A DNA stretch of 64,000 nucleotides from positions 1,013,162 through 1,077,161 of the forward strand of contig NZ_QYAB01000001.1 in assembly GCF_016758175.1 (NCBI RefSeq), written 5' to 3'. A program made the position numbers and the translations under genes. This document shows positions 2,895 to 20,189 of this stretch, piece after piece. This DNA comes from Leucobacter zeae. GTDB lineage: Bacteria > Actinomycetota > Actinomycetes > Actinomycetales > Microbacteriaceae. Every line of letters begins with the position of its first letter. Position 1 is the stretch's first letter. The notes below the pieces were generated by a model, which had not been told where the DNA came from, searched no databases, and saw only the letters and a program-made list of their open reading frames with translations.

Positions 2895-4223
2895 ATGCGT
2901 TTGTTCGCGATCCGCGACTTCCGTCACTTGTTCAGCGCGCAGATCATCGCCCTGTTCGGGACGGGGTTGGCGACCGTCGCCCTCGGTCTGCTCGCTTACG
3001 AGCTCGCCGGCCCGAGCGCGGGGGCGGTGCTTGCGACGGCGCTGACGATCAAGATGGTCATGTACGTCTTGATCGCGCCGCTGGCTGCGGCCTATGCCGA
3101 CCGGCTCCCGAGGCGGATGTTCCTGACCCTGCTCGATGTGGTGCGCGCGGTCGTGGTGCTCGCTCTGCCGTTCGTCACGGAGATCTGGCAGATCTACGTT
3201 CTCATCGGGATGCTGCAGGCGGCTTCTGCGGCGTTCACGCCGACGTTCCAGGCGGTCATCCCCGATATCGTGGTCGAGGAGTCCGATTACACGCGGGCGC
3301 TGTCCGCGTCGCAGGTGGCCTACACGATGGAGAGCCTGCTCAGTCCGGTGCTCGCGGCGGTTGCTCTGACGTTCATGACGTTCAACTGGTTGTTCGTCGG
3401 CACCTCGGTGGGTTTCGTGCTCTCCGCCGTCCTGGTGCTCTCGACTCGCATCCCCAACGCGACGCCAAGTGGGCACGCGGGTGCGTGGAACCGGGTCACC
3501 TCAGGCGTGAAGGTCTTCTTCTCTACTCCTCGTCTGCGCGGCGTCATGGCACTGAATCTGGTGGTTGCCGCAGCCGGATCGATCGTGGTGGTCAATACGG
3601 TCAACTACGTCCGGGATCAACTGGGCGGCACGCAGGCCGACGTGGCATGGATGCTCGCAGCCTCCGGCGGTGGCACACTGCTGGTCGCTCTGTTCCTGCC
3701 ACGCGTACTCGATCGGATCGCCGAGCGGGTCGTGATGATGACCGGTGCCGTGGTCCTGCTTGCCGGCGTGCTGGCAGCCGTCGCGATGACCGCCAGCCAG
3801 GCGGCCTCCTGGATGATCACGGCGCCGATCTGGGTGGTCATCGGCGGCGGGATGGCCTTGATCGTCACGCCCACCGGACGTGTCATTCGAGGTTCGGTCG
3901 CGAAGCGCGAGCTCCCGGCGGCTTTCGCGGCACAGTTCTCGCTGTCTCACTTGGCCTGGCTGGTGACCTACCCGATCGCGGGATGGGTCGGCACAGCGTC
4001 CGGATTCACGCTCGCCTGGTCGATCCTCGCAGCGCTCGCCGTCGCTGGGGCCATCGCGGCGCCGATCCTGTGGCACCGCGAGAAGAAGACCGAGGCCATT
4101 GATGTTGCTAGCGACGCGGAACGGGAGACTGGTGACCACGTGCCTCGTGAGCTAGGTGAGGAGACAGAAGCCGTCGAGGGCACGCTTGCGGCCTCCCAGT
4201 GCGCCTGCGTGCGCCTGGCATGA
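2895..4223 (+). CDS. MFS transporter, probable metal or drug exporter
   Basis: The 442-residue protein has about 12 hydrophobic segments and the MFS loop 2-3 motif after helix 2 (AAAYADRLPRR), then a central loop around residue 200. ATG at 2895 is preceded by AGGAG at 2884-2888. The reading frame extends further upstream, but that stretch covers the CsoR-type operator. The C-terminal 35 residues are acidic and polar. Adjacent copper lipoproteins and the operator suggest Cu-regulated export, although MFS fold alone does not identify the substrate. This kind of enterobactin-exporter-like MFS is often found in actinobacterial copper islands. Confidence 0.85.
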   Translation: MRLFAIRDFRHLFSAQIIALFGTGLATVALGLLAYELAGPSAGAVLATALTIKMVMYVLIAPLAAAYADRLPRRMFLTLLDVVRAVVVLALPFVTEIWQIYVLIGMLQAASAAFTPTFQAVIPDIVVEESDYTRALSASQVAYTMESLLSPVLAAVALTFMTFNWLFVGTSVGFVLSAVLVLSTRIPNATPSGHAGAWNRVTSGVKVFFSTPRLRGVMALNLVVAAAGSIVVVNTVNYVRDQLGGTQADVAWMLAASGGGTLLVALFLPRVLDRIAERVVMMTGAVVLLAGVLAAVAMTASQAASWMITAPIWVVIGGGMALIVTPTGRVIRGSVAKRELPAAFAAQFSLSHLAWLVTYPIAGWVGTASGFTLAWSILAALAVAGAIAAPILWHREKKTEAIDVASDAERETGDHVPRELGEETEAVEGTLAASQCACVRLA

Positions 4224-4601
4224 ACACAAAGATGGGGCGGGTGCTTTGTTCCGTACGTCGCATGGTGAGCGCACCCCAAAACCGCGCTCAGAATCGTTCG
4301 GCAGTCGCGGTGGCGGATAGCGGGGTAGGTGCTGCACAGAGAATTGTCGTGTGGCGTGTGCGGCACGGAGACCGTTACCGAACACGATGACTTCGGTAAT
4401 CTCGCGGACGAAGACGACAGCGGCGCGCCCAGTATGCCGGTGATCTCAAACGGGAGCAGCGCGAGAATGATCGCGAACGAGAGGACGATGGGCAGGACTT
4501 TCAGATGATGGAGGTGCTGGACACGCCGCGTGGTTGAGCATGCGCGCACCTTCCGGATGAGGCGGCCGTTCCGCTGGCCCCGCTTCGGGAAGGAGCCGGT
4601 G
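4224..4601. other. Intergenic region with possible gene remnant
   Basis: No convincing gene lies between the MFS exporter and the next gene. On the minus strand near 4435-4510 a short hydrophobic stretch (VLPIVLSFAIILALLPFEIT) is readable but has no credible start, flanking domain or ribosome site. It may be the remains of a membrane protein gene. Confidence 0.4.
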
Positions 4602-5087
4602 ATGTCCACATCAACTGAGCTTGCTGACATTGCGCGCGCGATTGCTGAACAGGCTGAGAGGCTTGATGGTGGACGGAGCGTCCTGCGTGAGCATCCCGAG
4701 CTGGTCGTCGACGTGCTGGATCCTCTCATTCGCATGCTGGACTCTGTGGCTCGGGTGGTCGATGCGGCCAGTACTGCGTTCCAGGAGCACGGCTCGACGG
4801 CTGTCACGATGGGTGGGAATCAGGCTCGTGGCTCTGCCCAGGCTCTGCGTGCCGGCGGGCTGCTCAGCGCCGCGTCAGCCCAGGTGCAGAGCCTGCGGAA
4901 CACGCTGATGGACGCGGGGACTGAGTCGTCCCTGTTGGCGTGGCCCGAGCATGATCCGCTCGCCGCCGAAGAGCTCAGCAACTACCGGCGGTTCCTTGAG
5001 CAGCGTGAACGCCAGCTCGACCCGGATGCCGTGTCGCAGCCGACAGCCACCGATCCGCGATCGCACGGCCCGATCGACCGCTCCTAG
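4602..5087 (+). CDS. Hypothetical protein upstream of the relaxase
   Basis: I do not recognise this 161-residue soluble protein. It is mostly helical, acidic at the start, and has an Ala/Gln-rich middle (residues about 75-110). There is no signal peptide or membrane segment. ATG at 4602 was chosen because AGGAG lies at 4591-4595; the upstream in-frame extension is Arg-rich and looks non-coding. It ends 30 bases before the MobF relaxase on the same strand. That position is typical for a relaxosome accessory or mobilisation protein, but this is inference from context only. Confidence 0.65.
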   Translation: MSTSTELADIARAIAEQAERLDGGRSVLREHPELVVDVLDPLIRMLDSVARVVDAASTAFQEHGSTAVTMGGNQARGSAQALRAGGLLSAASAQVQSLRNTLMDAGTESSLLAWPEHDPLAAEELSNYRRFLEQRERQLDPDAVSQPTATDPRSHGPIDRS

Positions 5088-5117
5088 CTTCCCAGCCAAC
5101 CTGCTGGGCGGGTGCTC

Positions 5118-8100
5118 ATGACATTGTCAATCAGGGTGATGACGGCCGGTGACGGGTACCGGTACCTGCTGAACTCTGTCGTGATCGGTGACGGTGACCG
5201 TGACGCTGCTTCGGCGTTGACGAGGTACTACCTCGAAGCAGGCACCCCGCCGGGTTCCTGGCTCGGGGCTGGCCTTCCCGGTCTCACCGGGAACATCACC
5301 TCGGGAACTGTGGTGAGCGAGGAGCAGCTGCGACGGCTCATGGGGTACGGGCAGGATCCCAACACGGGTGAGCAGCTGGGGCGCCCGTACCGGAAGTTCG
5401 CCACCGCCACCGAACGCGCAGAACGCCGTATCGCGCTGCTCCCTAACTCGTTGGCGCCGGGTGAGCGGGCGGTGCAGCGGGCACTGATCGAGGCGGAGGA
5501 GGCGCAGAAGCCGACGAACGCCCCGGTGGCGGGGTTCGATCTGACGTTCTCGGTGCCGAAGTCGGTCTCGACGCTGTGGGCCGTCGCCGACGGTGGCACG
5601 CAGGCACTGATCGCGCAGGCCCATCACGCGGCGATCGAGGACGTGATCGCGGTGCTCGAGCGGGATGTCGCGATGACGCGGGTCGGTGCGAAAGGGCCGC
5701 GCGGCGCGGTCGCGCAGGTCGAGGTTCGGGGTGTGATCGCGACCGCCTACGATCACTACGATTCGCGAGCGTCCGACCCGCAGCTCCACACCCACGTCGT
5801 CGTCGCGAACCGTGTCCAGGCCGTCCAGGATGGGAAGTGGCGCACCCTCGATTCCCGTGCCCTGCATGCCGCGGTGACCGGGCTCTCGGAGCACTACAAC
5901 GCTGTCCTCTCCGACCACCTCACCCAGACCCTCGGCGTCGGCTGGGAGGCCCGCGACCGCGGCACGGGCCGGTCGACCGCGTGGGAGATCGCCGGAGTAC
6001 CGCAGGAACTCATGGACGAGTTCTCCTCCCGCACCCGCGATATCGAGCGGGTCAAGGATCGCCTCGTCGCCGAATACGTGGACAAGCACGGCCGGCAGCC
6101 GTCGGGGAAGCTGCTGTGGCAGTTCCGGCAGCAGGCCACCCTCGAGACCCGACCCCCGAAACAGCACCACTCGCTGAGCGACCTCACCACCGGCTGGCGG
6201 GAACGCGCCACCCGCATGCTCGGTGAAGACGCCCCGGCCTGGGCGACCGCACTCCTCGCTGAGGCTGCCGGGGAGCCGTTGCTACGGGCCGACGACCTCC
6301 CGCTCGACGTACTCGATCAGGTCGCCCAGGTCGTGGTGGAGCAGGTGGGCGATCGGTCGGCGACCTGGAAGCGGTGGAACCTGCACGCAGAAGCAGTACG
6401 GCAGACGATGGGGCTCCGCTTCGCCCACACCACCGACCGCGACCAGATCCTCCGCCGGATCGTCGACGCCGCCGAGCACGCCTCGCTCCGCCTCACCCCA
6501 CCCGAGCTCGCCTCAAGCCCGCCCGTGTTCCGTCGCCTGGATGGGACGAGCGTGTTTCGTCCGAAGGGCGGGATCGTGTTCTCCTCGGAGCAGGTGCTCG
6601 CCGCCGAAGACCGCCTCCTCACCGCCTCCCACGCGAGAACGGCGCCAACCGTGCCGCTGGCATGGGTAGAGCACGCGGCGCGGGAGCGGAACCGGGACGG
6701 GCACACCCTGTCTTCGGATCAGGAGCAGGCGATCGCGAAGATCGGGGTCTCCGGCCGCGCCCTCGACGTGCTCGTCGGCCCCGCAGGTACGGGGAAGACG
6801 ACCACGATGCGTGCGCTCCGGCGCGCATGGGAGCGCCGGTACGGGGCAGGATCGGTGATCGGTCTCGCACCGTCGGCCGCTGCCGCGGACGTCCTCGCCG
6901 AGGACTTGGAGATCGGTACGGAGAACACGGCGAAGTGGTTGCACGAGCACCGCCGCGGCACCTGGAACCTCACTCGCGGGCAGCTCGTGATCATCGACGA
7001 GGCGTCGCTCGCGGGCACGTTCGCGCTCGACGCGATCACCACCCACGCCCAGAGCGTCGGGGCGAAAGTGCTGCTCGTAGGAGATTGGGCGCAACTGGCC
7101 GCGGTGGACGCGGGCGGGGCGTTTGGGATGCTCGTCCGCGACCGCGGCGACGCCCCCGAGCTGGTGGATGTGCGCCGCTTCCGCAACGACTGGGAGAAGC
7201 ACGCCTCCCTGCAGCTGCGGGTCGGAGATACCGACGTCATCGACACCTACCTCGGGCACGGCCGGGTGGTGCCGGGTGGGTATGACGAGATCCTCGAAGC
7301 CGCCTACCAAGCCTGGCGGGCCGATCAAGAGGCCGGGAAGACGACGGTGCTGATCGCTGAAACCCTCGACACGGTCTCCGAGCTCAACACCCGCGCCCGC
7401 ACCGACCGCATCCTCGCCGGCCATGTCGCGCTCGACGGGGTGCGCCTCCACGACGGGAACGAAGCCTCCCGCGGCGACCTGATCATCACGCGCCGGAACG
7501 ATCGCCGTCTCACCTTGGGGCGGGGGTGGGTGAAGAACAGCGATCGGTGGGAAGTCGCCCGCGCGAACGAGGACGGATCCTTGACGGTGCGGAGGGCGAA
7601 GTCTCGGTGGCGCACCACGATCACGCTGCCCGCCGCCTACGTCGCCGAGCACGTCGAGCTCGGGTATGCCGTCACCGCGCACCGCGCCCAGGGCTCCACA
7701 GTCGACACCGCGCACGCGATCGTCCACTCCCCGGAAGTGACCCGCGAATCGCTGTACGTCGCAATGACGAGGGGCCGCGAATCCAACCAGGTGTATGTCG
7801 CGACCGATCAGCACCATCTCGAAGAGCACCAGCACCGCCAGGATCTGCAGCACACCGCCCGCAGCATCCTCTACGGAATCCTCCAGCACCCCGGCGCCGA
7901 GCTCTCCGCCCACGACACCATCACCGTCGAACAAGACATGTGGGGGTCGCTCGAGCAGCTCGCCGCCGAATATGACACCATCGCCCAGGCCGCCGGACAG
8001 GAACGGTGGATCCGGCTCCTCGAAACCGGCGGCCTCACCCCGGAGACGATCGATGAGCTCGTGGAGACGGACGCGTTTGGGATCCTCACGACCGAGTTGC

Positions 8101-8636
8101 GCAGGCTCGAAGCCGACGGCCATCACATCGATGACCTCCTGCCGCGCATCATCCACGCCGGTGGCCTGGACGATGTGCAGGATCTCGGATCGCTGCTGCG
8201 CTACCGACTCCACCGCATCACCACCACCTACCCGCCCTCGGCCCGCCGAGCGGCAGGACGCATCGCCGGCCTCGTCCCCCGCGCCACCGGGATCACCGAC
8301 CCCGACATGCGGCAGGCGCTTCAGGAACGCGAGCAGCTCATGGAGGAGCGCCTCGACGCCCTCGTCCAGCAGCACCTCACCCAGCCACCCTCCTGGGCTG
8401 CAGAGCTGGACGGGCTCACGCCGGAGGCCCGGGCGGTCGTGGTGCGCGCGGTGGCCGCGTACCGGGATCGATGGGGCATCACCGCGTCGAGCCCGCTCGG
8501 AACGATCCCGCTCGACGACGCGCAACGCATCGACTACGAACGCGTCCAAGCTCGACTCTCTGCGATGACCTCACAGGACGATGAGCCCGCCGCGACGATG
8601 CGTCCGGCGAGCCCGAGTTCACAGCGCCGGCTCTGA
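5118..8636 (+). CDS. MobF-family relaxase with RecD-like helicase (TrwC/TraA type)
   Basis: The 1172-residue conjugation protein nicks and covalently holds oriT, then unwinds the plasmid or element strand. The N-terminal TrwC domain (about residues 1-330) has catalytic tyrosine candidates near the start (GYRYLL) and the metal-binding histidine motif DPQLHTH with first His near residue 224. The helicase part has Walker A GPAGTGKT near 553, Walker B IIDEAS and the late SF1 motif VTAHRAQGST near 850. ATG at 5118 sits after GGGCGGG; GTG at 5112 is an alternative. This is full length for actinobacterial MobF relaxases. It shows that the surrounding DNA is, or derives from, a transmissible element. 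Confidence 0.93.
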   Translation: MTLSIRVMTAGDGYRYLLNSVVIGDGDRDAASALTRYYLEAGTPPGSWLGAGLPGLTGNITSGTVVSEEQLRRLMGYGQDPNTGEQLGRPYRKFATATERAERRIALLPNSLAPGERAVQRALIEAEEAQKPTNAPVAGFDLTFSVPKSVSTLWAVADGGTQALIAQAHHAAIEDVIAVLERDVAMTRVGAKGPRGAVAQVEVRGVIATAYDHYDSRASDPQLHTHVVVANRVQAVQDGKWRTLDSRALHAAVTGLSEHYNAVLSDHLTQTLGVGWEARDRGTGRSTAWEIAGVPQELMDEFSSRTRDIERVKDRLVAEYVDKHGRQPSGKLLWQFRQQATLETRPPKQHHSLSDLTTGWRERATRMLGEDAPAWATALLAEAAGEPLLRADDLPLDVLDQVAQVVVEQVGDRSATWKRWNLHAEAVRQTMGLRFAHTTDRDQILRRIVDAAEHASLRLTPPELASSPPVFRRLDGTSVFRPKGGIVFSSEQVLAAEDRLLTASHARTAPTVPLAWVEHAARERNRDGHTLSSDQEQAIAKIGVSGRALDVLVGPAGTGKTTTMRALRRAWERRYGAGSVIGLAPSAAAADVLAEDLEIGTENTAKWLHEHRRGTWNLTRGQLVIIDEASLAGTFALDAITTHAQSVGAKVLLVGDWAQLAAVDAGGAFGMLVRDRGDAPELVDVRRFRNDWEKHASLQLRVGDTDVIDTYLGHGRVVPGGYDEILEAAYQAWRADQEAGKTTVLIAETLDTVSELNTRARTDRILAGHVALDGVRLHDGNEASRGDLIITRRNDRRLTLGRGWVKNSDRWEVARANEDGSLTVRRAKSRWRTTITLPAAYVAEHVELGYAVTAHRAQGSTVDTAHAIVHSPEVTRESLYVAMTRGRESNQVYVATDQHHLEEHQHRQDLQHTARSILYGILQHPGAELSAHDTITVEQDMWGSLEQLAAEYDTIAQAAGQERWIRLLETGGLTPETIDELVETDAFGILTTELRRLEADGHHIDDLLPRIIHAGGLDDVQDLGSLLRYRLHRITTTYPPSARRAAGRIAGLVPRATGITDPDMRQALQEREQLMEERLDALVQQHLTQPPSWAAELDGLTPEARAVVVRAVAAYRDRWGITASSPLGTIPLDDAQRIDYERVQARLSAMTSQDDEPAATMRPASPSSQRRL

Positions 8637-10188: not shown

Positions 10189-10587
10189 ATGACGCTCTTC
10201 CATCGACTCTGGGACGACAGCATCCACACCCGTAGATTCCTGCGCCGCCAGATGCCCACGAACATCCTCCTCGACAAGATCCGCACCCGCCGAGGCCTCA
10301 AATGGGGCATCCCTGCAATGCTCATCCTCGGCGGCGGATACATCTTCGCTGCCGCGATGTGCATCACCCTTATCCGGCACGACTGGCACGAAAGTCTCTA
10401 CCTGCTGTTCGCCCTGCTGCTCTGGAACGGGTTCAAATTCCTCTGGATCGGCCCGATCAGCCTCGCCCTCCTCACCAGGGCGCGCCTCCGCGAACGACGC
10501 GCTTCGGCCTCCGCGCAGCGAGTAGGGACCTCGGGGACGAGCGGGACTTCTCCAGACTTGAAGGATGCATCCTTCACAACTCGATAA
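10189..10587 (+). CDS. Small membrane protein, often labelled sulfate permease in actinobacterial genomes
   Basis: The 132-residue protein starts with a basic cytoplasmic segment ([19 protein letters not shown]). Two membrane helices follow, near residues 42-62 and 70-95, then a basic, Ser/Thr-rich tail. Proteins with this N-terminal pattern are widespread in Microbacteriaceae mobile regions and are often named sulfate permease, but at this size transport of sulfate is not plausible and I do not endorse the name. It precedes the integrase by 56 bases on the same strand. Function unknown. Confidence 0.7.
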
Positions 10588-10643
10588 AGTCAGCAAAGCT
10601 ACCTCGCTACGCCACCACGTCCCGAGCGTGGAGGTGGCACCTC

Positions 10644-11825
10644 GTGGCTAGACCTCGCACCCCGATTGGCACCTTCGGCGTCATCGCGACCTCCCGCACC
10701 GCCCAGAAGCGGTACGTCGCCCGCACGAGATACCGCGATTGGGACGGCAGGAGCCGCCACGTCCAAGTCACCGCGGACACCCGCGCTGCAGCCGAACGCG
10801 CCCTGAAGAAGAAGCTCGCCGAGCGAGACCTCTTCCAACCAGGCTTCTCCGGCATGACCGCGGACAGCCCGTTCCCCGCGCTCGTCTCCTACTGGTTGGA
10901 AGACATGGAGCTCGAAGATCGGCTCTCCCGAACCACCCGGCTCCTGTACGAACGGAACATGCAGACTCTCGTCCTCCCGTTCTTCAGGAACGTCACACTC
11001 CGGGAAATCGGTGTCGCTCGCTGTGACTATTTCCTCAAACAGCTCGCGAAGCAGAGCTACAACCGTGCCCGACAAGCGCGCGTCGTCCTTCGACTCGCCC
11101 TCGCTCTCGCGGTCCGCCATGAGATCCTGCCGCGCAATCCGATGGATCACGTCTCGCGCCTCTGCCGCCCGGCGCGAACTCCGGACGTCTACTCTTGGGA
11201 AGAGGTCGCAGCAATCCGGTCCGGTATCAGGTCGTGGGAGCAGCGCGAGATCACGGCAGGCCCGCGCCCCGATGGGCAACTCGGGCAGATTGTGGAGGTG
11301 CTCCTCGGCACCTCGGCACGCATCGGTGAGGTACTCGCGGTCCGTCTCGGGGATCTCGATCTCGACGCGCCGATCCCCGCAGTGCGGATCTGCGGCACGA
11401 TCATCAGCAGAAAGGGGGAGCCCACTCATCGACAGGACCATCCGAAGACGGCCCGTTCGGTGCGTCGAGTCGCCCTTCCGAGCTTCGCGCTCCGTGCAGT
11501 CCGGGCAAGGCTGGAACGGATCCGTTTCACGCACCCTGACGCACTGCTGTTCTCGACTCGCATCGGTACTCCGCATACGACGAACAACGTCCGGAGGCAG
11601 CTCCGTGACGTCATGGAGCGGGCAGGCGTCCCAGACGTTACACCGCATCGGTTCCGCCGCACCGCAGCCACCGCAATCAATGAGATCGGGGGTCTCCAAC
11701 TCGCTTCCGAGTTGCTCGGGCACAGTGACCCCGCGATCACGCGAGAACACTACATCCGCCGCAACGAGACCGTGAACCCAGCGACGGCTGGGTACTTGGA
11801 GCAGGCCTTCGGGCGAGCGAGCTGA
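10644..11825 (+). CDS. int: Tyrosine recombinase / integrase
   Basis: The 393-residue site-specific recombinase has an N-terminal arm-binding segment and a core-binding domain (about residues 60-165). The C-terminal catalytic domain shows Arg226 (SARIGEV), HRFRR with His335 and Arg338, His360 (LLGHSD) and the nucleophile Tyr370 (REHYIRR). All catalytic residues are present, so it should be active. GTG at 10644 was chosen because GGAGGTGG ends 6 bases upstream; longer readings overlap the membrane-protein gene. It probably integrates the element at tRNA-Pro(GGG), whose 3' half lies at 18,522. Cargo genes lie between integrase and that end. Confidence 0.93.
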   Translation: MARPRTPIGTFGVIATSRTAQKRYVARTRYRDWDGRSRHVQVTADTRAAAERALKKKLAERDLFQPGFSGMTADSPFPALVSYWLEDMELEDRLSRTTRLLYERNMQTLVLPFFRNVTLREIGVARCDYFLKQLAKQSYNRARQARVVLRLALALAVRHEILPRNPMDHVSRLCRPARTPDVYSWEEVAAIRSGIRSWEQREITAGPRPDGQLGQIVEVLLGTSARIGEVLAVRLGDLDLDAPIPAVRICGTIISRKGEPTHRQDHPKTARSVRRVALPSFALRAVRARLERIRFTHPDALLFSTRIGTPHTTNNVRRQLRDVMERAGVPDVTPHRFRRTAATAINEIGGLQLASELLGHSDPAITREHYIRRNETVNPATAGYLEQAFGRAS

Positions 11826-12061: not shown

Positions 12062-14101
12062 ATGAGTCTAAGTTCAGTCATTATCGCGTCATCTCGCGCT
12101 GCGACACCGCTCGCATCGCTTATCAACAACGACTGTGCGGCCATTGGTGGCGTTTTTCGACTTGACTACTCCTCAGCTGTCGTGCTTACAGATGACTGGC
12201 GAAAAACTCAGGCAGGCGGTGTCCCACATGGCGCATTTCTGTTGGCGGCCGCCGGGAAGCAGACCGATGGAGGTTTCGCACTCGATGACCAAGAGCTGAT
12301 ACTCCTCAGAGTCCGAGGTACAAGCGCCCTCCCGAACGAAGCAGACCTGGTGCAGACGCGGCTAGCGGTGGTTCGTGACGCCAGTGACTCCGGAAAAGAT
12401 TTCGATGATGTCACCGACGAGCTCACCCGCAACGAGCTCCAGCAGTCTGCCTTCGATTGTGAAGTCATTGGAACGTTCTACACGGAACCGAACGCCGACA
12501 TAGTTGAGTTTGGCTCGGACATCGACAATGTGGTTTCTTCGGCTAGATATCAGGTGTTCCTGCCGTCGGAGAATGTGCTCTCCTGGATCGCTTCCTATCC
12601 TGAGCCTAGAGGCAACAATCTACTCACCCTCGGAGTGGTGCGCTTCTCGTCCACGCGCCGCCGCGCGCGGGCGGCGGGAGTCGACGCGGCACCTGTTCGC
12701 GTCCACATTGACGACTTCGTAGCCCGCAAGACAGCGGTCTTTGGTATGACGCGAACGGGCAAATCGAACACGATCAAGACTCTGGTGACGGCCGTTTATC
12801 AGCACGGTGCTGAAGCGGGTGCGATGGTGGGGCAGCTGATCTTTGACCCGCAGGGTGAATATGCCAATGTCAATGAGCAAGATCAGACTGGCTTGCGGCT
12901 GCTGGGTGATACTGCTGACCACGTGCGAGTGTACAAGGAGCGCCCTGACCCGTCGAAACCTGTCGAGCAGGCGCTCAGAATCAACTTCTTGGACCCAGCC
13001 ACTCTGTCCACAGTTTGGGCGATGGTTCAGCAGGAGATCGCGGAGTCTTCGTCTTCCGGTGCGCAGTACATGGCGGGATTTCGCGGCGTGATCATGGATG
13101 CTCCTGATCCCAGCGACTTCAGTGCTCTGAATCACTTTGAGCGCAACAGGCTCGCCTTCTACGCACTGCTTGAACGAGCAGGGATCTCCGGGGCGCTGTC
13201 GTCGACCCGAGTCACTCTATCCACTGCGCTGATCGCGGACCTGGGATCCACGATCCCTAATCTGACTGCCAACGGCAAGTACGTTTACCTCCAGCACACA
13301 TCTGCCGCGAAGTCGCTTCTGGAATGGCTCCAGCTGCAGAACGCAAGCAACAATTCGAATCTATCGAAATCGTGGGTGGACGACTTCAGCGCAGGTGAAC
13401 TGGCTGACATCATCAAGGCGATGGACGGCCGGGCGGGCGACGCTGCAATCAAACGGCTCAAGCCATTTCACGACCCGGCGGCCGTCGGCGACATTGGTGA
13501 GCTTGTGTGGAATGACATGGTCGCAGGTCGACTAGTCATTATCGATCTATCGCGAGGCAATGGAACCGTCGTTCGAACACTGTCGGAGCGGGTGGTAACT
13601 ACCTTGCTGAATCATGCTCAAGACGACTTCGCGGAGGGAAAAACGTCGACACCGTTCCAGATCGTCGTCGAAGAAGCTCACAATCTCTTTGAGCGCGGCA
13701 GCAAGGACGTTGCGGGCAACCCATGGGTTCGTCTCTCCAAGGAGGCTGCAAAGTACAAGATCGGCTTGCTCTACGCAACGCAAGAGGTCTCTAGCGTTGA
13801 TCAGCGGATCCTGTCGAACACCTCGAACTGGCTCGTGGCGCACCTCAACTCTGACAACGAAACTCGCGAACTTTCCCATTATTATGACTTCAAGACATGG
13901 GCCGACAGTATTCGCAGGGTTGAGGATCAGGGCTTCGTTCGGATGAAGACCTACTCTGGCAAGTACATTGTTCCCGTGCAGGTCGCAAAGTTCGATCATG
14001 AGATGATCAATAGTGCACGTGGAGCTGCTGGTCTTTCTCCTGTAGCCCCAGATCTGGATGGGGGAACGGCTCCTGCGGCTGCCTCGGGTGAGGTTTTGTA
14101 G
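12062..14101 (+). CDS. HerA-type DNA translocase ATPase
   Basis: The 679-residue protein belongs to the FtsK-HerA ATPase superfamily, hexameric motors that pump double-stranded DNA. An N-terminal HAS-barrel-like beta domain covers about residues 20-205. The ATPase core has Walker A GMTRTGKSNT (Lys234), the DPQGEY motif shortly after it, Walker B IVVEEAHNLF (Glu537-538) and the sensor region LYATQEVSSVDQRIL. HerA partners NurA to resect DNA in archaea; bacterial homologues drive several phage-defence complexes. It opens a five-gene block, with a NurA-type nuclease only 2 bases downstream. Codon use is less GC-rich than in the chromosomal part. Alone it could also act in repair. Confidence 0.93.
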   Translation: MSLSSVIIASSRAATPLASLINNDCAAIGGVFRLDYSSAVVLTDDWRKTQAGGVPHGAFLLAAAGKQTDGGFALDDQELILLRVRGTSALPNEADLVQTRLAVVRDASDSGKDFDDVTDELTRNELQQSAFDCEVIGTFYTEPNADIVEFGSDIDNVVSSARYQVFLPSENVLSWIASYPEPRGNNLLTLGVVRFSSTRRRARAAGVDAAPVRVHIDDFVARKTAVFGMTRTGKSNTIKTLVTAVYQHGAEAGAMVGQLIFDPQGEYANVNEQDQTGLRLLGDTADHVRVYKERPDPSKPVEQALRINFLDPATLSTVWAMVQQEIAESSSSGAQYMAGFRGVIMDAPDPSDFSALNHFERNRLAFYALLERAGISGALSSTRVTLSTALIADLGSTIPNLTANGKYVYLQHTSAAKSLLEWLQLQNASNNSNLSKSWVDDFSAGELADIIKAMDGRAGDAAIKRLKPFHDPAAVGDIGELVWNDMVAGRLVIIDLSRGNGTVVRTLSERVVTTLLNHAQDDFAEGKTSTPFQIVVEEAHNLFERGSKDVAGNPWVRLSKEAAKYKIGLLYATQEVSSVDQRILSNTSNWLVAHLNSDNETRELSHYYDFKTWADSIRRVEDQGFVRMKTYSGKYIVPVQVAKFDHEMINSARGAAGLSPVAPDLDGGTAPAAASGEVL

Positions 14102-14103
14102 GG

Positions 14104-15525
14104 ATGCCGTATCCGTCTGAGCGAGCCTCTCGCCTCGGCCACGTTCCTGTGGTGAATAGCCAGGCTGTCCACGATGCCTTCTCGCGATGGAAGGTAGCGC
14201 AGGCTTCCCCTGAAGACGAGAGTTTGGTTACGTCGCTCTGTAGGCCGATCACGGATCTACCCAATGGAGATACCTCAGAAGGGGTCCGATTCGCGATTAC
14301 CGTAGATGGTTCAGATGCTGAAGTTGAAGCGACTCGTGAGCATCCTACGGTCAAGGTTGGGTATGTTCGGGTGGCCGCTTCCTTCGTCGACTTGGAGAAG
14401 CTCCACCATGCAGGTGCGGGTGAGTTCGTCAATCCGCGGGAGCTCCGTGAAGCACATCAGCATGCGGCCTTCGATGGAGCGCTTCCTGGATCAGGATTGA
14501 TTATTCCTGGGCTTTCAGGCGTCGATACATGGAGGCAGGAGCTTGATAGGCTATTGGCCTCGACAACATTCGATGATGACTCGCCGTTAACACTCGCTGA
14601 CATGCTGTTGGCTCTGCATGGAGGGCCAGGAAGCCCGTCGGAAACAGCGCCCCTGCGTCGCTGCCCTAACTGTGGAGCAGGAGAAGACAACCTCCCTGAC
14701 GGGGTACTTTCCGTTCCAAAGCACGGGTGTTCGTGCCCGGTATGCGGGGGTCGCATCTATCTAGGTGATGTGCTTCGTACTCACGAAGAGTACATGCCGG
14801 AAGGATCTAACCAAAGCGCGCTCACCCGGATGATGCTGGTGGCAGAGAGACTCACCTCTCTCGGCTACATGCAGGTCCTTCACTCCGATCAGCATGGACT
14901 CGATGCGCTCGCGCAGACGATCTTTATTACAGACGGACCTCTGGCTCTCTTTGGCGTCGTCGCGCCCCTGAAACGCAGATTCCAGAGCTACCTCTCGGGC
15001 CTTGCAACACACTGCAATGTGAACAATCGCGCCGCCTCACCGTTGGTTGTGGGAGTCGAGAAGAGCGGTAGGTTCGTTGAACATGCGCAACTCGTCTCGC
15101 ATCTAATTCCACCCGGAAGCGTGATGGCATTATCGACTGCATACATCAATCGGATGACAGGACGCGCTCCGCAGCACCAATACGGTACAGACGAGTTCTA
15201 TGGACGCAGATTCATCTATAGGACAACGAGCGGTAACCCGCTTGTCATCACTGTGCCCCCGGCGCCCGGGATAGCGCCCTACGGCGATGTAGCGGGCGAA
15301 GACACCATGAACTACCCAACCTTGAGGCCTATCTGTGAAGTTCTCGACCGGGTTCAAACCCGATTGTATGCGAACGCGGTCATCCCGGTTGCACTCGCGC
15401 ACTCGGCCGCTTCGTTGCCACTCGGAGTTGGGCAGTCAGTGCTTCGGGCTCTCGGACAGCAACTCCTTGGACTGCCATCGCGCAGTCTGGTGACTCAGCG
15501 GGGCCCCTTCCCAGGTACTCACTGA
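14104..15525 (+). CDS. NurA-domain nuclease with zinc-ribbon insert
   Basis: The 473-residue protein carries NurA-type metal-binding motifs: ITVDGSDA with Asp68, TDGPLALFG with Asp277, and VGVEKSGRF, then the NurA-like C-terminal helix region with LAHSAASLPLG. NurA proteins are 5'-3' exo/endonucleases fed by HerA. Unlike the compact archaeal forms, it contains a CPNC/CPVC zinc ribbon (Cys187, 190, 211, 214). Its start is 2 bases after the HerA stop, so the two are probably translationally coupled and made in fixed ratio. Identification rests on motif order and the HerA partner. Confidence 0.85.
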   Translation: MPYPSERASRLGHVPVVNSQAVHDAFSRWKVAQASPEDESLVTSLCRPITDLPNGDTSEGVRFAITVDGSDAEVEATREHPTVKVGYVRVAASFVDLEKLHHAGAGEFVNPRELREAHQHAAFDGALPGSGLIIPGLSGVDTWRQELDRLLASTTFDDDSPLTLADMLLALHGGPGSPSETAPLRRCPNCGAGEDNLPDGVLSVPKHGCSCPVCGGRIYLGDVLRTHEEYMPEGSNQSALTRMMLVAERLTSLGYMQVLHSDQHGLDALAQTIFITDGPLALFGVVAPLKRRFQSYLSGLATHCNVNNRAASPLVVGVEKSGRFVEHAQLVSHLIPPGSVMALSTAYINRMTGRAPQHQYGTDEFYGRRFIYRTTSGNPLVITVPPAPGIAPYGDVAGEDTMNYPTLRPICEVLDRVQTRLYANAVIPVALAHSAASLPLGVGQSVLRALGQQLLGLPSRSLVTQRGPFPGTH

Positions 15526-15557
15526 CCCCGGCGCATGAGAAACTAGGACTGACAAGA

Positions 15558-16703
15558 TTGACGCAACAAGAGAGGTCGTGTGCGTTGCTTCAACCGGCAC
15601 CGTCGGCCCCTCTTGCCGTGTCCCGCCAGCTGGGCGTTGTTCACAACAACGAAGAAGCACCCACTCAGCCTAAGAGATTTCTGTCACCGCTCAGGTACCC
15701 GGGCGCGAAGTCGAAGCTCACACCGATCATCGCCGAGATGGTACAGCGTGCACGGCGTGCCCGACGACTTCGAGGGCCGCTTACGCTCATTGAGCCATTC
15801 GCTGGAGGCGCAGCCACCTCACTGCGACTCCTTACTGACGGCATTGTTGAACATGCCTTCATCGCTGATGGCGACCCAATGGTGGCGTCATTCTGGCGTG
15901 AAGCAGCTATGCGTCCATCTGCTCTGATTCAAGCAATGCGTGCAGAGTACCGGAACTACGTGAGTATCGGTGGTGCTACAGCCGTCGCTCGTTGGGACCA
16001 CTGGCGACAGCTCGACGTGCCCACTGGAAAGTTGGATGAGTCAGCTCAGCACCAGTTGGCGATGAAATGCCTATTCCTAAATCGCACAACGTTTTCAGGC
16101 ATCTTGCATGGTAGTGCGGGACCGATCGGCGGCCGTGCGCAGAAAGAAGGTGGTTACTCAATCTCGTGTCGATTCAATCCTGACGCGCTGGCGGAACGGA
16201 TTCAATGGATTGGCCACCTGTACGCAACTGGAAAGCTCCTCGAACCAAAGTGTCAGGACTGGCGTCAGTCGCTCATCGACTTTGCGTCGGCTGGGTCAGT
16301 TCGTGATGGAGTCATTGCGTATCTTGATCCGCCATACGTTGCGAAGTCGACCAAGCTCTATCGCAAATCGTTTAAGGCCGAAGCGCTGGATCGCTGGGGA
16401 GACATGACTGAGCACCTGAATCTCGCGGCATACCTGAGGCAGTCCACACCATTCCGCTGGATTCTTTCCTACGACTACAACCCAGAGCTCACGACCGACG
16501 TGATGCTCTATCGATCAGGGACCGTCACACCCACGGAGGCTACGGCCGCGCTCGGGGCAGGTAGGTATCGCATGGTCAAGGGGTTGATCGAACTCCAGCA
16601 CACCGCTTCCGTCAGCAACCGGCGGCGTCCAGTACAGGAATTGGTCATCTCAACTTTATCGGAGTCTGATACAGCCGGACTCATTACCCCACTTCCGCAG
16701 TAG
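15558..16703 (+). CDS. Dam-type DNA N6-adenine methyltransferase
   Basis: The 381-residue class alpha (D12) adenine methylase transfers methyl from S-adenosylmethionine to adenine N6. Motif X/N-terminal lobe is SPLRYPGAKSKL, motif I is IEPFAGGA (Glu79) and catalytic motif IV is DPPY (Asp257-Tyr260); the stretch between holds the target-recognition part. The start is TTG at 15,558 with a poor ribosome site, so expression may be low; GTG at 15,618 is an alternative. It lies 32 bases after the nuclease. In this setting it probably protects host DNA from the HerA/NurA pair, like a modification subunit. The recognition sequence cannot be read from the protein. Confidence 0.9.
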   Translation: MTQQERSCALLQPAPSAPLAVSRQLGVVHNNEEAPTQPKRFLSPLRYPGAKSKLTPIIAEMVQRARRARRLRGPLTLIEPFAGGAATSLRLLTDGIVEHAFIADGDPMVASFWREAAMRPSALIQAMRAEYRNYVSIGGATAVARWDHWRQLDVPTGKLDESAQHQLAMKCLFLNRTTFSGILHGSAGPIGGRAQKEGGYSISCRFNPDALAERIQWIGHLYATGKLLEPKCQDWRQSLIDFASAGSVRDGVIAYLDPPYVAKSTKLYRKSFKAEALDRWGDMTEHLNLAAYLRQSTPFRWILSYDYNPELTTDVMLYRSGTVTPTEATAALGAGRYRMVKGLIELQHTASVSNRRRPVQELVISTLSESDTAGLITPLPQ

Positions 16704-16751
16704 TGAAAACCTGCTTACATGGGCTCTAAGTGCTAGATAGATTGGAAACGT

Positions 16752-17621
16752 ATGGCTGGAAAACGTACTCGAACCAGAAGTATCGCGGCATACTCAATCC
16801 ACGGACGGGATGCTTCGGGCCTGATTGATTATGCGCAGTTTGTCGCGACGATCGCCAACTTCGCTTCGGCTCGCAAGAGTCGCAAGCGTGTACTGGGTCA
16901 GGTTGTGGCTGTTACGGAGTCAAGCCGCATCAGTGAAGACGTCATGGCTCTGAGATTCATCTCTGGAAACGAGGACGACGTCCCAGTCTTCTACAATGAG
17001 CAAACCGGCACCGAGGAATCGATAGAACGAGAAGAAGGTGTCTTCGCGGTTGCCGTATGGGCGATCTTCAACACGAGATCACGCCTGGTCGCGATCGAAC
17101 GAAAGCGCCCAGGGGTTTCAACGGCGCTCATTGAGCGGTATCTTCAAGCTCTAGGGCGCGACGCCGGATATGAGGGGCTGAGCATTGATCTCAACCAGGT
17201 CACATCCGACGAGTTCGACAAGGCCGTCAGCGAACTTGAAACCGTCAAGAAGGTGACAGTGGCGGTCAACCAGCCGAACCTGGACTGGTCGGACGATAGT
17301 AATGAGATCCATCGATATGCGGAAGAATCCAGTGCTGCAAGTGCCCGTGTCGAACTTATTGCGCCGCGAGGAGAAGGTCTCTCGAGGAGCAAGGGAATTG
17401 TACATGACATCTTGGGTCTCGCCCGCAAGAAGATCTCCTCGCTGAAGAACGTAATTGTCGTAGGTCAGGCCTATGGTGAAGCAGGAAACAAGACCATCAA
17501 CCTCGACCGATACGTGAGGAAGCGGCAGGTTGAGATTGATCGAGGTGCGTCTGCATTTGATGAGCTAGATGCCATCAAGGACGCCTCTATCGAAATGATC
17601 GCCGAGGACGAGACCGCATAG
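16752..17621 (+). CDS. Uncharacterised protein of the HerA/NurA/methylase operon
   Basis: I do not recognise this 289-residue soluble protein. It begins with a basic stretch and YSIHGRDASGL. An alternating beta region (residues about 40-125) includes FAVAVWAIFNTRSRLVAIER, and mixed alpha/beta with many acidic residues follows to the acidic end. No signal peptide, membrane helix or obvious nuclease or kinase motif is visible. ATG at 16,752 lies 48 bases after the methylase stop; the next gene is 39 bases downstream. Its placement suggests a dedicated regulator, sensor or effector of the putative defence operon. Confidence 0.75.
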   Translation: MAGKRTRTRSIAAYSIHGRDASGLIDYAQFVATIANFASARKSRKRVLGQVVAVTESSRISEDVMALRFISGNEDDVPVFYNEQTGTEESIEREEGVFAVAVWAIFNTRSRLVAIERKRPGVSTALIERYLQALGRDAGYEGLSIDLNQVTSDEFDKAVSELETVKKVTVAVNQPNLDWSDDSNEIHRYAEESSAASARVELIAPRGEGLSRSKGIVHDILGLARKKISSLKNVIVVGQAYGEAGNKTINLDRYVRKRQVEIDRGASAFDELDAIKDASIEMIAEDETA

Positions 17622-17660
17622 CTCTTTTCCAACGCCCGCCGCATAACCAGGAGGTGTGAA

Positions 17661-18317
17661 ATGGCGAAAAAGAGATCACTCGGGTTCTGGCGCGGCGAGG
17701 TATGGGGGCGGCGCAGGCAGATCTTGCTGGATCCGGCGTTCTGGCTGGCACTCGTCCTGGGCGCGGCGACGACTCTTCTGGCTCCTCTTATCCCGCTAGG
17801 TGCACTGAAAGTTGAAGAGCTGGCAAACTATGCGCTTCTCTATTCTGCTCTGAGCTTTGGCGCCGCAATTGCCGGGGCAGGTATCGCGCTGGGGGTGCCC
17901 GGTGATAAGCGCATTAAGAGATGGTCGACTTTGATCCCTAAGGGGGCAAAGTACTCATCGTTTCAAAACCTACTTTTCACATTTGCTTGGTCGGCTATGG
18001 CGCAGATTGGGCTCGTCTTAGTTTCATTTCTTTCGATCGCTATCGGAACTGGGTACAGGGTATTACCTCTCGGAATTACGGTCATGAGTGCACCTGCGCA
18101 TTATGCTGCAGCGTTTCTGTCCTTCTGGCTCTGGTGGTACGCGCTTCTTGAATTGACGGCGGTCGTCAGAATCTTTATGCAGGTGGCGGGCGCAATTGCA
18201 AAGGAAAACGTGATGAACGTAGATCCAGAGGGTGAAGAGGTTCGTGATCGTGAAGGAGGGGAGTCGGGGGTTGACCCTAACGCCGCAAAGCCTTCTCTCC
18301 TGTTGCTGGACGACTAG
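17661..18317 (+). CDS. Four-helix membrane protein at end of defence-like operon
   Basis: The 218-residue protein has a basic N-terminus. Hydrophobic segments lie near residues 27-47, 55-78, 107-132 and 142-172. A charged soluble C-terminal tail (about 178-218) includes acidic stretches and ends in DD. The ribosome site AGGAGGTG is perfect, so it should be well translated. No family is recognised. Four-helix membrane proteins at the ends of defence operons often act as membrane-disrupting effectors or anchors for the complex, but here that is only an analogy. It is the last gene before the attachment site. Confidence 0.75.
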   Translation: MAKKRSLGFWRGEVWGRRRQILLDPAFWLALVLGAATTLLAPLIPLGALKVEELANYALLYSALSFGAAIAGAGIALGVPGDKRIKRWSTLIPKGAKYSSFQNLLFTFAWSAMAQIGLVLVSFLSIAIGTGYRVLPLGITVMSAPAHYAAAFLSFWLWWYALLELTAVVRIFMQVAGAIAKENVMNVDPEGEEVRDREGGESGVDPNAAKPSLLLLDD

Positions 18318-18521: not shown

Positions 18522-18565
18522 CTGGGGGTCAAGGGGTCGCAGGTTCAAATCCTGTCAGTCCGACT
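18522..18565 (+). other. Attachment site: 3' half of tRNA-Pro(GGG)
   Basis: The stretch reads as a tRNA 3' half. It contains anticodon loop CTGGGGG, the 3' anticodon stem TCAAG, T arm GCAGG-TTCAAAT-CCTGT (18,539-18,555), acceptor strand CAGTCCG and discriminator A (18,563). C1-G72 type acceptor and GGG anticodon mark it as proline tRNA. No 5' half is present here, so it is the duplicated end left by integrase-mediated insertion; the intact gene should lie at the other element end, outside the window. 18,318-18,521 contains no gene. Confidence 0.85.
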
Positions 18566-18571
18566 AAAAAG

Positions 18572-18599
18572 CCCTGATGAGAAGCAATTTTCACCAGGG
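18572..18599 (+). terminator. Terminator hairpin following the tRNA fragment
   Basis: CCCTGATGAGA pairs with TTTCACCAGGG apart from one mismatch, with a 6-base loop, 9 bases after the tRNA fragment. It was probably carried along as the original tRNA terminator. Nothing recognisable lies between 18,600 and 18,864. Confidence 0.55.
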
Positions 18600-18864: not shown

Positions 18865-20189
18865 TCAGCTTGACTCTCGAGCGCTTCCTCCACATCCACC
18901 GTCGCGTTCACGGCACGTTCGTGCGTAGGTGAACCAGACGGCTGCGCCCGAGGCGACAAGCGAGAGGAAAGCAAGGACCAGCGACCACCTCTGCGACCGG
19001 ATCCCTTCGATCGACGCCGTGAGACTACTCGCGAGGTCCAGAATCCCGAGAAGCTCACGGTCAAGGCCTGCGAGTCTCCTCGCTTCCTTTGCCGGTCGTT
19101 TCGCCCATTCTTTGAGGACACTGGTCTCGGATTTCGCCCATCCTTTGTCTGTGCGCTCACGGTTGGCCAGCGTGGGGACTTGCCACTCATGCACGTAGTC
19201 GTTGCCCGTCAGGGTTTCGATGTCATGAGCCATCGTGGCCACGTCGATGCTCGACCTGAGCACAGATCTTCTCGGCTTCTTCGCGCTGGTCCTGGGCGGC
19301 GAGAATGCAGCGAACTCGCCTGATCTCGCGCGATCGCTACAGCTTCTTGTTTGACACGAAGAAGCTCGAAAAGTCCGAATCGTGTGATCGGGCCCGGCAC
19401 GCCGAAGTTGAGCTCGCGCAGGATCGCGCCTTCAGTTCTTTGTTCTCCGTAGTTCCGGAAGCTCTTCCTCCTACCGAGAGCGGCATCGAACTTCGCGATC
19501 AGCGCGAGGCTCGAATCCCGGCGAACGCGATCGACGGTCTCGGGCTGGTGCTCCATGATCCGGAAGCGCTTCCACTCGGGCGCGCGCAACAAACTGAAGG
19601 GGTCCTGGCCCATGCCCAGTGCACGTTGGAAATTCGCCTCGCTGCGAGCTGGGTAGTCCAACTCGAAGGGATCGCGGCGCCGGGTGAAGAGCATGTCGAG
19701 TGCCGGGTGCGGAGCTTTGGCTTCCACTGCGAAGAGGCCGGGAAGCTCTTCTGCGAACCAATCGCGACCGGTCTGATGTAATTCCTCGCGCTTCTCTTTC
19801 ACAGCGTCGAGCGCGACGAACATGCGCTTCCGGGCCTGCAGTGTGCCCTTGTACCGATACAACCGCGGCTGGTGGTCTGTTCTCAGCAAGGCGTCAATCG
19901 CTTTCGAAGCCGTCTCCGTCAGTCTGAACTTGGCGACTACAGCCGTCGGCGCGGATCCCAGTGGGAGCAAAGTGAGGCTGATCGAGTCGAACTCTTCCGG
20001 AAACTTCCTTCGGACAGCCCAGGGTGCGCGAAATCAGCGTTGACCCACTTCCGGCCACGGACCCGCTGCATGAGCGCTTCAACATGACTTGGGGAGCAAT
20101 ACTCCACGAGCCAGAAGCCTGGCAGTGACACCCTCTCGTGTTCGGGTACGACGATGTTGTACCTCGTACTTTCGCGAACAGACTGGTCT
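18865..20189 (-). pseudogene. Decayed gene encoding a membrane-anchored protein
   Basis: Consecutive protein-like segments on the minus strand sit in different frames. The first (about 20,189-19,990) includes RYNIVVPEHERVSLPGFWLV. The long middle (19,970 to about 19,320) includes DWFAEELPGLFAVEAKAP. A short piece has AAQDQREEAEKICAQVE. The C-terminal piece (19,263-18,865) includes GNDYVHEWQVP and a membrane helix (LVLAFLSLVASGAAVWF). At least two, probably three, frameshifts and a missing start are needed to join them, so the gene is broken unless these are assembly errors. I do not recognise the family. It lies just outside the attachment site, on the chromosomal side. Confidence 0.6.

What the first reader, a model, noticed from the sequence alone, without database searches (positions are those of the whole stretch)
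12062..18317. Candidate new restriction-type defence system: HerA-NurA-adenine methylase-unknown-membrane protein
Five co-directional genes with gaps of 2, 32, 48 and 39 bases combine a DNA translocase, a nuclease, a DNA methylase, an orphan protein and a four-helix membrane protein. They sit in the cargo slot of an integrative element, between integrase and attachment site. HerA homologues work in several known phage-defence complexes (with SIR2 or DUF4297 partners), but a NurA plus Dam-type methylase plus these two unknown genes is not a combination I can match to a named system. The model: the methylase marks self DNA and HerA/NurA degrades unmarked DNA.
Basis: partly seen in the sequence, partly recalled or inferred. 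Interest (0 to 1): 0.88.

Follow-up and report, generated by a model that had tools for sequence, protein, structure and literature searches.

The report
Methylase-paired HerA–NurA DNA restriction system
Three of the five genes form a widespread, apparently unnamed bacterial and archaeal immune system in which a DNA pump and a nuclease seem to destroy DNA that lacks the cell's own methyl marks, while the other two genes look like a separate passenger pair.

Summary
The five genes are there as described, but they are not one system. HerA–NurA–methylase is a conserved triad; genes 4–5 are an independent pair. Of 75 HerA–NurA loci with full flanks (window included), 69 carry an amino-methyltransferase within two genes, against 4 of 815 other ORFs. 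Methylase class changes at least 3 times and position at least 6 times along a quick NurA tree, yet it stays adjacent. Hosts include Actinobacteria, Chloroflexi, Clostridia, Helicobacter, methanogens, a haloarchaeal plasmid and a Vibrio phage, beside its integrase. Flanks look defence-rich. The nearest solved HerA is TdpA, of a phosphorothioation-linked system. Best reading: an R-M-like system whose restriction part is a ring translocase feeding an unspecific nuclease, held off by self-methylation; unproven. Genes 4–5 occur together in 4 of 4 places found, twice without HerA–NurA nearby; they fail a sequence-level Kiwa test. No complete named system matched PADLOC; no paper listed describes it.

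The parts
12062..14101 (+). HerA-type ring DNA translocase (679 aa), core of the triad
   Evidence: Pfam DUF87 2.1e-13; nearest solved chain TdpA 8wet, 5.9e-19 alone, 1.8e-37 with a 31-row profile; Walker A GMTRTGKS and VVEEAH intact
14104..15525 (+). NurA-family nuclease with an inserted four-cysteine zinc-ribbon-like segment (473 aa), core of the triad
   Evidence: Pfam NurA in 9 of 45 aligned family members, not in the window protein itself; D68, D277, E248, K320 and C187/C190/C211/C214 invariant in 45 of 45
15558..16703 (+). D12-class adenine DNA methyltransferase (381 aa, TTG start uncertain), core of the triad
   Evidence: Pfam MethyltransfD12 1.8e-11; PADLOC PD-Lambda-5_B 2.8e-50; DPPY at residue 257; amino-methylase adjacent in 69 of 75 loci
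16752..17621 (+). Unknown soluble protein (289 aa), first gene of a separate two-gene module
   Evidence: no significant family hit; paired with the next gene in 4 of 4 loci found
17661..18317 (+). Membrane protein with four hydrophobic regions (218 aa), second gene of the separate module
   Evidence: no significant family hit; hydropathy; found beside the previous gene in all 4 loci
10302..11825 (+). Tyrosine recombinase (integrase) upstream of the operon; the true start is probably inside this ORF
   Evidence: Pfam Phage_integrase 2.1e-17, residues 330-488
18524..18583 (+). 3' remnant of a tRNA-Pro gene plus its downstream stretch, candidate attachment site
   Evidence: 53 of 60 bases identical to intact tRNA-Pro(GGG) at G000:C1 965347-965421

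Best explanation
HerA-NurA-methylase is a modification-gated restriction system. The methylase adds amino-methyl marks (m6A by family here) at its site across the host DNA. HerA, a hexameric ring translocase, loads on incoming DNA, probably at a free end, and feeds it into a NurA dimer that digests both strands. On host DNA the methyl marks stop loading, translocation or cutting. Specificity thus lies in the methylase mark and not in the nuclease, which would explain why one HerA-NurA pair works with unrelated amino-methylases. Shown: the genes, their motifs, the recurrent triad, methylase swapping, the mobile and defence-rich setting. Inferred: hexamer and dimer from homologues; self-protection by methylation; the block step. 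Genes 4-5 are a separate two-gene, membrane-linked module carried in the same operon here; that it is also defensive is a guess from its setting.
For: 69 of 75 full-flank HerA-NurA loci have an amino-methylase within 2 genes, against 4 of 815 other ORFs. Same strand in 64 of 65, gap of 120 bases or less in 61 of 65. Methylase class needs at least 3 changes and position at least 6 on the NurA tree, so adjacency seems re-established rather than merely inherited. The 10 partner proteins scanned fall in D12 or N6_N4 families, but for L101, which PADLOC calls a type II methylase. Of 73 loci with complete HerA and NurA, 66 have a complete methylase, 2 are cut by a contig end and 5 have none; no inner one has a partial methylase, whereas 5 of 9 methylase-bearing inner loci with an incomplete effector do (for L101). 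Patchy: 9 of 396 genomes of the phylum, own included. Borne by plasmids and by a Vibrio phage between integrase and excisionase. 120 sampled flanking ORFs hit 136 PADLOC models at 1e-20, 120 control ORFs hit 4. The closest solved HerA is TdpA, by a wide margin (1.8e-37 against 5.2e-18). A characterised archaeal HerA-NurA digests both strands of dsDNA exonucleolytically, and its NurA does not cut circular dsDNA (PMC12977600, abstract and passages).
Against: No experiment shows defence, methylation or methylation-sensitive cleavage. Five cyanobacterial loci have HerA-NurA with no recognised methylase within two genes. NurA-to-TdpB similarity is not significant (E 0.68-0.82). In the SPPF group methylase and NurA distances agree only weakly (rho 0.32, 13 of 500 shuffles as high) and HerA-methylase not at all (-0.09). 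Decay of effector and methylase together may just be decay of whole loci or assembly error in metagenome bins. HMMs for the second-type methylases were seeded from adjacent genes. The tree is a quick one with long-branch warnings. The PADLOC models hit by flanking ORFs overlap (of the 25 shown, none hits more than 3 of 120 proteins), one of the 120 flanking ORFs is the adjacent methylase of L101, and the control came from 6 genomes only.
Confidence: 0.7

Rival explanations
1. All five genes form one defence complex, with genes 4-5 as sensor and membrane anchor of HerA-NurA.
For: Same strand, gaps of 48 and 39 bases in the window; L055 holds the pair and the triad in one island.
Against: Only the window has the pair in the operon among the NurA-bearing loci. 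The pair occurs without the triad in 2 of 2 places found by searching gene 4 itself (neighbourhoods), and G092 is not among the genomes with a NurA match at 1e-5. The nearest relatives at about 75% identity lack the pair. L055 came from a NurA search, so it is biased towards the triad.
Confidence: 0.08
2. A DNA-repair HerA-NurA with an unrelated methylase beside it.
For: Canonical archaeal HerA-NurA has been assigned to end resection (PMC12977600, which itself doubts this); same Pfam families.
Against: Patchy presence (9 of 396), mobile elements and defence-rich flanks; the methylase link recurs in 69 of 75 loci with class swaps; no Mre11 or Rad50 hit among the 9 window proteins scanned.
Confidence: 0.1
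3. Inverse logic: HerA-NurA attacks methylated or otherwise marked invader DNA, or the methylase only tunes HerA-NurA expression or phage genes.
For: Methylation-dependent (type IV) restriction exists (recalled); 5 cyanobacterial loci lack an adjacent methylase. The window methylase resembles PD-Lambda-5_B, part of a system whose authors call it a compacted prophage version of an RM+Abi system (PMC9519451, passages).
Against: A methylase marking the host would make the host a target; none of the inner loci with complete effector has a partial methylase.
Confidence: 0.08
4. Genes 4-5 are a divergent Kiwa (KwaA membrane protein plus KwaB).
For: Same ground plan of a membrane protein of about 200 aa and a soluble protein of about 300 aa; Kiwa described in PMC12904381 (passage).
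Against: No KwaA or KwaB model hit in PADLOC or Pfam for the two proteins and no KwaB hit in the window genome; HMM-HMM comparison with KwaB of L125-L126 and their upstream membrane proteins (KwaA by position only) plus one of L127 gives probability under 1%; gene order reversed relative to L125 and L126.
Confidence: 0.1

Closest known systems
Tdp system (TdpA-TdpB, PDB 8wet; An et al. 2025, seen only as a citation in PMC12345140, and as PDB names)
   Same: TdpA is the closest solved HerA (1.8e-37); modification-linked translocase-nuclease logic (function recalled, paper not held)
   Different: Mark is phosphorothioate rather than a methyl group; TdpB is 375 aa with no significant match to this NurA (E 0.68-0.82); here the partner is an amino-methylase
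Archaeal HerA-NurA (T. kodakarensis, PMC12977600, abstract and passages)
   Same: HerA plus NurA; exonucleolytic digestion of both dsDNA strands; authors suggest a defence role
   Different: No methylase mentioned in that text ('methyl' 0 occurrences); the family here has an inserted four-cysteine segment in NurA (its absence in the archaeal protein was not compared)
SIR2-HerA and DUF4297-HerA defence complexes (named in passages of PMC12345140, and PMC12977600)
   Same: HerA ring paired with an effector enzyme
   Different: No SIR2 or DUF4297 domain among the five genes; a methylase is part of the set
HerA/FtsK capture systems (PMC10853773 section 22; PMC12839542 passages)
   Same: HerA/FtsK pump paired with nucleases in mobile anti-invader loci
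   Different: NurA has 0 occurrences in either main text; the systems described use Orc/Cdc6, REase, PglZ, TGT and others
PD-Lambda-5 (PADLOC; PMC9519451 passages)
   Same: Window methylase matches the PD-Lambda-5_B model at 2.8e-50
   Different: No PD-Lambda-5_A hit among the five genes
Type I, II and III restriction-modification
   Same: DNA methylase next to a DNA-degrading enzyme
   Different: No specificity subunit, SF2 helicase or site-specific endonuclease model hit among the five genes

Membership tests
Restriction-modification in the broad sense | A DNA methylase genetically linked to a DNA-degrading enzyme | tested here: met
   69 of 75 loci; methylase families D12 and N6_N4
Restriction-modification in the broad sense | Methylation protects DNA from the enzyme | not testable with these tools
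   needs biochemistry; only indirect genetic signs
Type I, II or III R-M | HsdR/Res SF2 helicase or site-specific restriction endonuclease | tested here: not met
   no such domain among the five genes in Pfam, PADLOC or NCBIfam
Tdp | TdpA-like HerA | tested here: met
   best solved match 1.8e-37, next 5.2e-18
Tdp | TdpB nuclease | tested here: inconclusive
   E 0.72, 0.82 and 0.68 with three profiles
Tdp | Phosphorothioate-forming enzyme | tested here: inconclusive
   no such hit among genes 2-5, but a model of the Tdp sulphur enzyme may not be in these libraries; in most triad loci a methylase stands there
Canonical HerA-NurA | HerA central domain (DUF87) | tested here: met
   2.1e-13
Canonical HerA-NurA | NurA domain (PF09376) | tested here: met
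   by family: 9 of 45 members, best 5.6e-31; window protein itself has no hit
Canonical HerA-NurA repair operon | Mre11 and Rad50 neighbours (recalled) | tested here: not met
   none among 9 window proteins scanned; not in the 25 Pfam families shown of 122 for 120 flanking ORFs
SIR2-HerA / DUF4297-HerA | SIR2 or DUF4297 partner | tested here: not met
   no such domain in the operon
PD-Lambda-5 | Both PD-Lambda-5_A and _B | tested here: not met
   B-type methylase at 2.8e-50, no A
Kiwa (genes 4-5) | KwaB (PF16162) and KwaA by sequence | tested here: not met
   no model hit; HMM-HMM probability under 1% with small alignments
Kiwa (genes 4-5) | KwaB fold | not tested
   structure prediction was interrupted and then switched off

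The most novel reading that the evidence does not exclude
HerA-NurA-methylase is a distinct, domain-spanning type of restriction-modification. The restriction part is a site-unspecific ring translocase-exonuclease that enters at DNA ends, and the host's methyl mark acts as a roadblock or brake. Because it reads a bulky or amino-methyl mark rather than one sequence, the same chassis accepts unrelated methylases (m6A, m4C) and, in the related Tdp system, phosphorothioate.
Probability: 0.4. Interest if true: 0.86.

Novelty: new variant of a known kind. Interest (0 to 1): 0.72.

Why it matters
If true, restriction-modification has a further architecture spread over bacteria, archaea, plasmids and phages, which DNA-repair labels (NurA, HerA) hide in annotation. 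It would explain what many bacterial HerA-NurA pairs are for. It would also make testable how a ring translocase tells self from non-self DNA without a site-specific nuclease, and why its modification enzyme can be swapped. The Vibrio phage and actinobacterial copies offer ready material.

Tried and rejected
One five-gene system: rejected on distribution. Kiwa for genes 4-5: model search and HMM-HMM comparison negative; small alignments, so only sequence-level. Direct NurA-TdpB homology: three profiles, none significant. Gene 4 in genome contigs and viral contigs: no relative. Gene 4 and NurA in plasmids: 0 and 5 records. Close DNA relatives of the operon in plasmids: none. Attachment repeat: none found at the remnant within window 1-24000; the other copies in the genome with up to 3 mismatches are two tRNA-Pro genes, 2 mismatches in 22 bases. 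Rfam: nothing at gathering score in window 1-24000. Papers PMC521647, 10.1128/JB.05535-11, 10.1038/s41589-024-01832-w and 10.1093/nar/gkt157 were not held, so earlier predictions in them cannot be excluded. No tool here searches DefenseFinder or REBASE.

15 of the 90 are not in the 75: 5 pairs without and 3 with a methylase near a contig end, and 7 without a recognised HerA-NurA pair. The 90 loci leave the window out and add L146. Of the 66 complete methylases there, 62 cover at least 85% of a model, 3 cover 84% (L029, L031, L032) and one (L101) rests on PADLOC. Flanking ORFs: 120 of 362 eligible were scanned, control 120 of 169 from 18 regions of 6 genomes. The NurA scan kept 80 of 82 relatives. 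Of the two Vibrio phage records only one (H6) was opened. Listings were cut (20 of 584; 25 of 117).
Full report
What is there. The five ORFs, their order and their gaps are as reported. Gene 1 is a HerA-type translocase, gene 3 a D12-class adenine methylase. Gene 2 is NurA by family: the window protein alone hits no Pfam model significantly, but 9 of 45 aligned relatives hit PF09376, best 5.6e-31. D68, D277 and four cysteines (C187, C190, C211, C214) are invariant in all 45 rows, so the family carries a zinc-ribbon-like insert. Genes 4 and 5 have no significant match in four libraries.

The triad is conserved. A scan of the species-genome collection with one peptide pattern from a 13-row NurA alignment gave 82 relatives, 80 kept, from Actinobacteria, Chloroflexi, Clostridia, Cyanobacteria, Helicobacter, Patescibacteria, Bacteroidales, Planctomycetota, Gemmatimonadota, Acidobacteriota and methanogens (titles, phyla). 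Plasmid copies lie in Halorarius, Deferribacter and cyanobacteria. After dropping second copies there were 90 loci with the window. Of 75 with a HerA-NurA pair away from contig ends, 69 have an amino-methylase within two genes; among 815 other ORFs of the same loci, 4 match those methylase models. Of the six exceptions, L101 has a PADLOC type II methylase upstream (4.4e-52); the other five (L022, L023, L077, L080, L100) form one cyanobacterial group. HerA-NurA gaps lie within -120 to +60 bases in 71 of 73, and the methylase is on the same strand in 64 of 65.

The methylase is exchangeable. Among 10 partners scanned in Pfam, D12 is the best hit of L018, L027, L107 and L108, N6_N4 of five with SPPY or SPPF motifs, and L101 hits neither. 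That SPP[YF] suggests N4-cytosine methylation is recalled, not tested. On the NurA tree (84 rows, quick method, long-branch warnings) the methylase class needs at least 3 changes, its position 6, both together 8. The window itself shows this: its nearest HerA and NurA (74.5-76.4% identity) are in Cellulosimicrobium and Cellulomonas with the methylase upstream, while its own methylase is downstream, and the 13 best-scoring other methylases share only 43-48% with it. Distances of NurA and methylase agree in the D12 group (40 loci, rho 0.61, 0 of 500 shuffles as high) and the SPPY group (11 loci, 0.96, 0 of 500), but weakly in the SPPF group (14 loci, 0.32, 13 of 500), where HerA and methylase do not agree (-0.09).

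Signs of function. Of 73 loci with complete HerA and NurA (window not counted), 66 carry a complete methylase, 2 are cut by a contig end and 5 are the cyanobacteria; no inner locus has a partial methylase. Of 10 inner loci with an incomplete effector (the split HerA of the Vibrio phage included), 4 keep the methylase, 5 have a partial one and 1 has none (for L101). This is what a toxic effector that needs its methylase would leave, but shared decay of loci or assembly error would look similar. Presence is patchy (9 of 396 genomes of the phylum, own included). Flanking ORFs hit 136 PADLOC models at 1e-20 in a sample of 120, control ORFs 4 in 120. The tool gives no number of proteins with a hit; of the 25 models shown, none hits more than 3 proteins, and most are overlapping models of type I and II methylases and AbiEi. 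Two Vibrio phage records carry a NurA relative. The one opened has HerA, NurA and a convergent type II methylase between integrase and excisionase, a slot like that of the window; that it is temperate is inferred from those genes.

Mechanism. The closest solved HerA is TdpA (1.8e-37, next 5.2e-18), from a system that a cited title links to DNA phosphorothioation (citation only). Archaeal HerA-NurA of T. kodakarensis digests both strands of dsDNA exonucleolytically, and its NurA does not cut circular dsDNA; its authors suggest antiviral defence (PMC12977600, abstract and passages). Together with the methylase this gives the model: mark self, pump and digest what is unmarked. The block by methylation is inference. 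Whether entry needs a free end here is inference from the archaeal complex.

Genes 4-5. In 396 genomes each gene occurs only in the window genome and G092, side by side there; 325 genomes of the class add G457, again side by side. With L055 this is 4 of 4 as a pair, in the same order. G092 and G457 show no HerA-NurA within the 18 kb read, and G092 is not among the NurA-bearing genomes. The pair is a module of its own, joined to the triad only in the window as far as seen. Kiwa was tested and not met at sequence level; no fold could be predicted.

Known or new. In PADLOC 2.0.0 the window NurA hits no model and no complete named system fits. Searches combining HerA and NurA or HerA with methyltransferase, methylase, defence or anti-phage terms listed no paper that describes this combination by title or abstract start (one search showed 25 of 117). 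Papers looked at in passages or single sections: PMC10855626, PMC11291478, PMC9519451, PMC12839542, PMC12345140, PMC7159879, PMC10853773, PMC12904381, PMC12977600. The library holds only open-licence papers, and four likely sources were not held, so an earlier mention is possible. I rate it a new variant of modification-gated restriction, not a wholly new kind, because Tdp already pairs a HerA relative with a DNA mark (function recalled).

Noticed in passing
L146 (Vibrio phage PQ189353.1) 1309-4871: HerA is split into two overlapping reading frames in this phage, upstream of a complete NurA and a convergent type II methylase; two subunits or a broken gene, not resolved.
   Followed up: partly
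L024 (Deferribacter megaplasmid) 2961-6759: HerA is interrupted by an IS200/IS605 element with TnpB while NurA and the methylase look complete.
   Followed up: no
L022, L023, L077, L080, L100: Cyanobacterial HerA-NurA pairs have a small ORF (82 aa; annotated as an HTH regulator in L022 and L023) upstream instead of a methylase; L077 and L100 hold large NPPY-motif ORFs further downstream.
   Followed up: no
window 18524-18583 and G000:C1 965347-965421: tRNA-Pro remnant and intact tRNA-Pro(GGG) lie 66 kb apart on one strand with a tRNA-Cys between; the bounds of the mobile element stay open.
   Followed up: partly
window 5112-8636: MobF-family relaxase/helicase (Pfam TrwC 1.8e-89), so the element may be conjugative or mobilisable; the gene 4-5 pair of L124 also lies near an ORF of similar size and N-terminus (by eye).
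   Followed up: no
L055 8837-13509: Defence island: triad, then an ORF that looks like an m5C methylase by its N-terminus (recalled motif), then the gene 4-5 pair.
   Followed up: no
window 19209-19970 (-): 253-aa ORF beyond the tRNA remnant with no hit in PADLOC, Pfam or NCBIfam.
   Followed up: no
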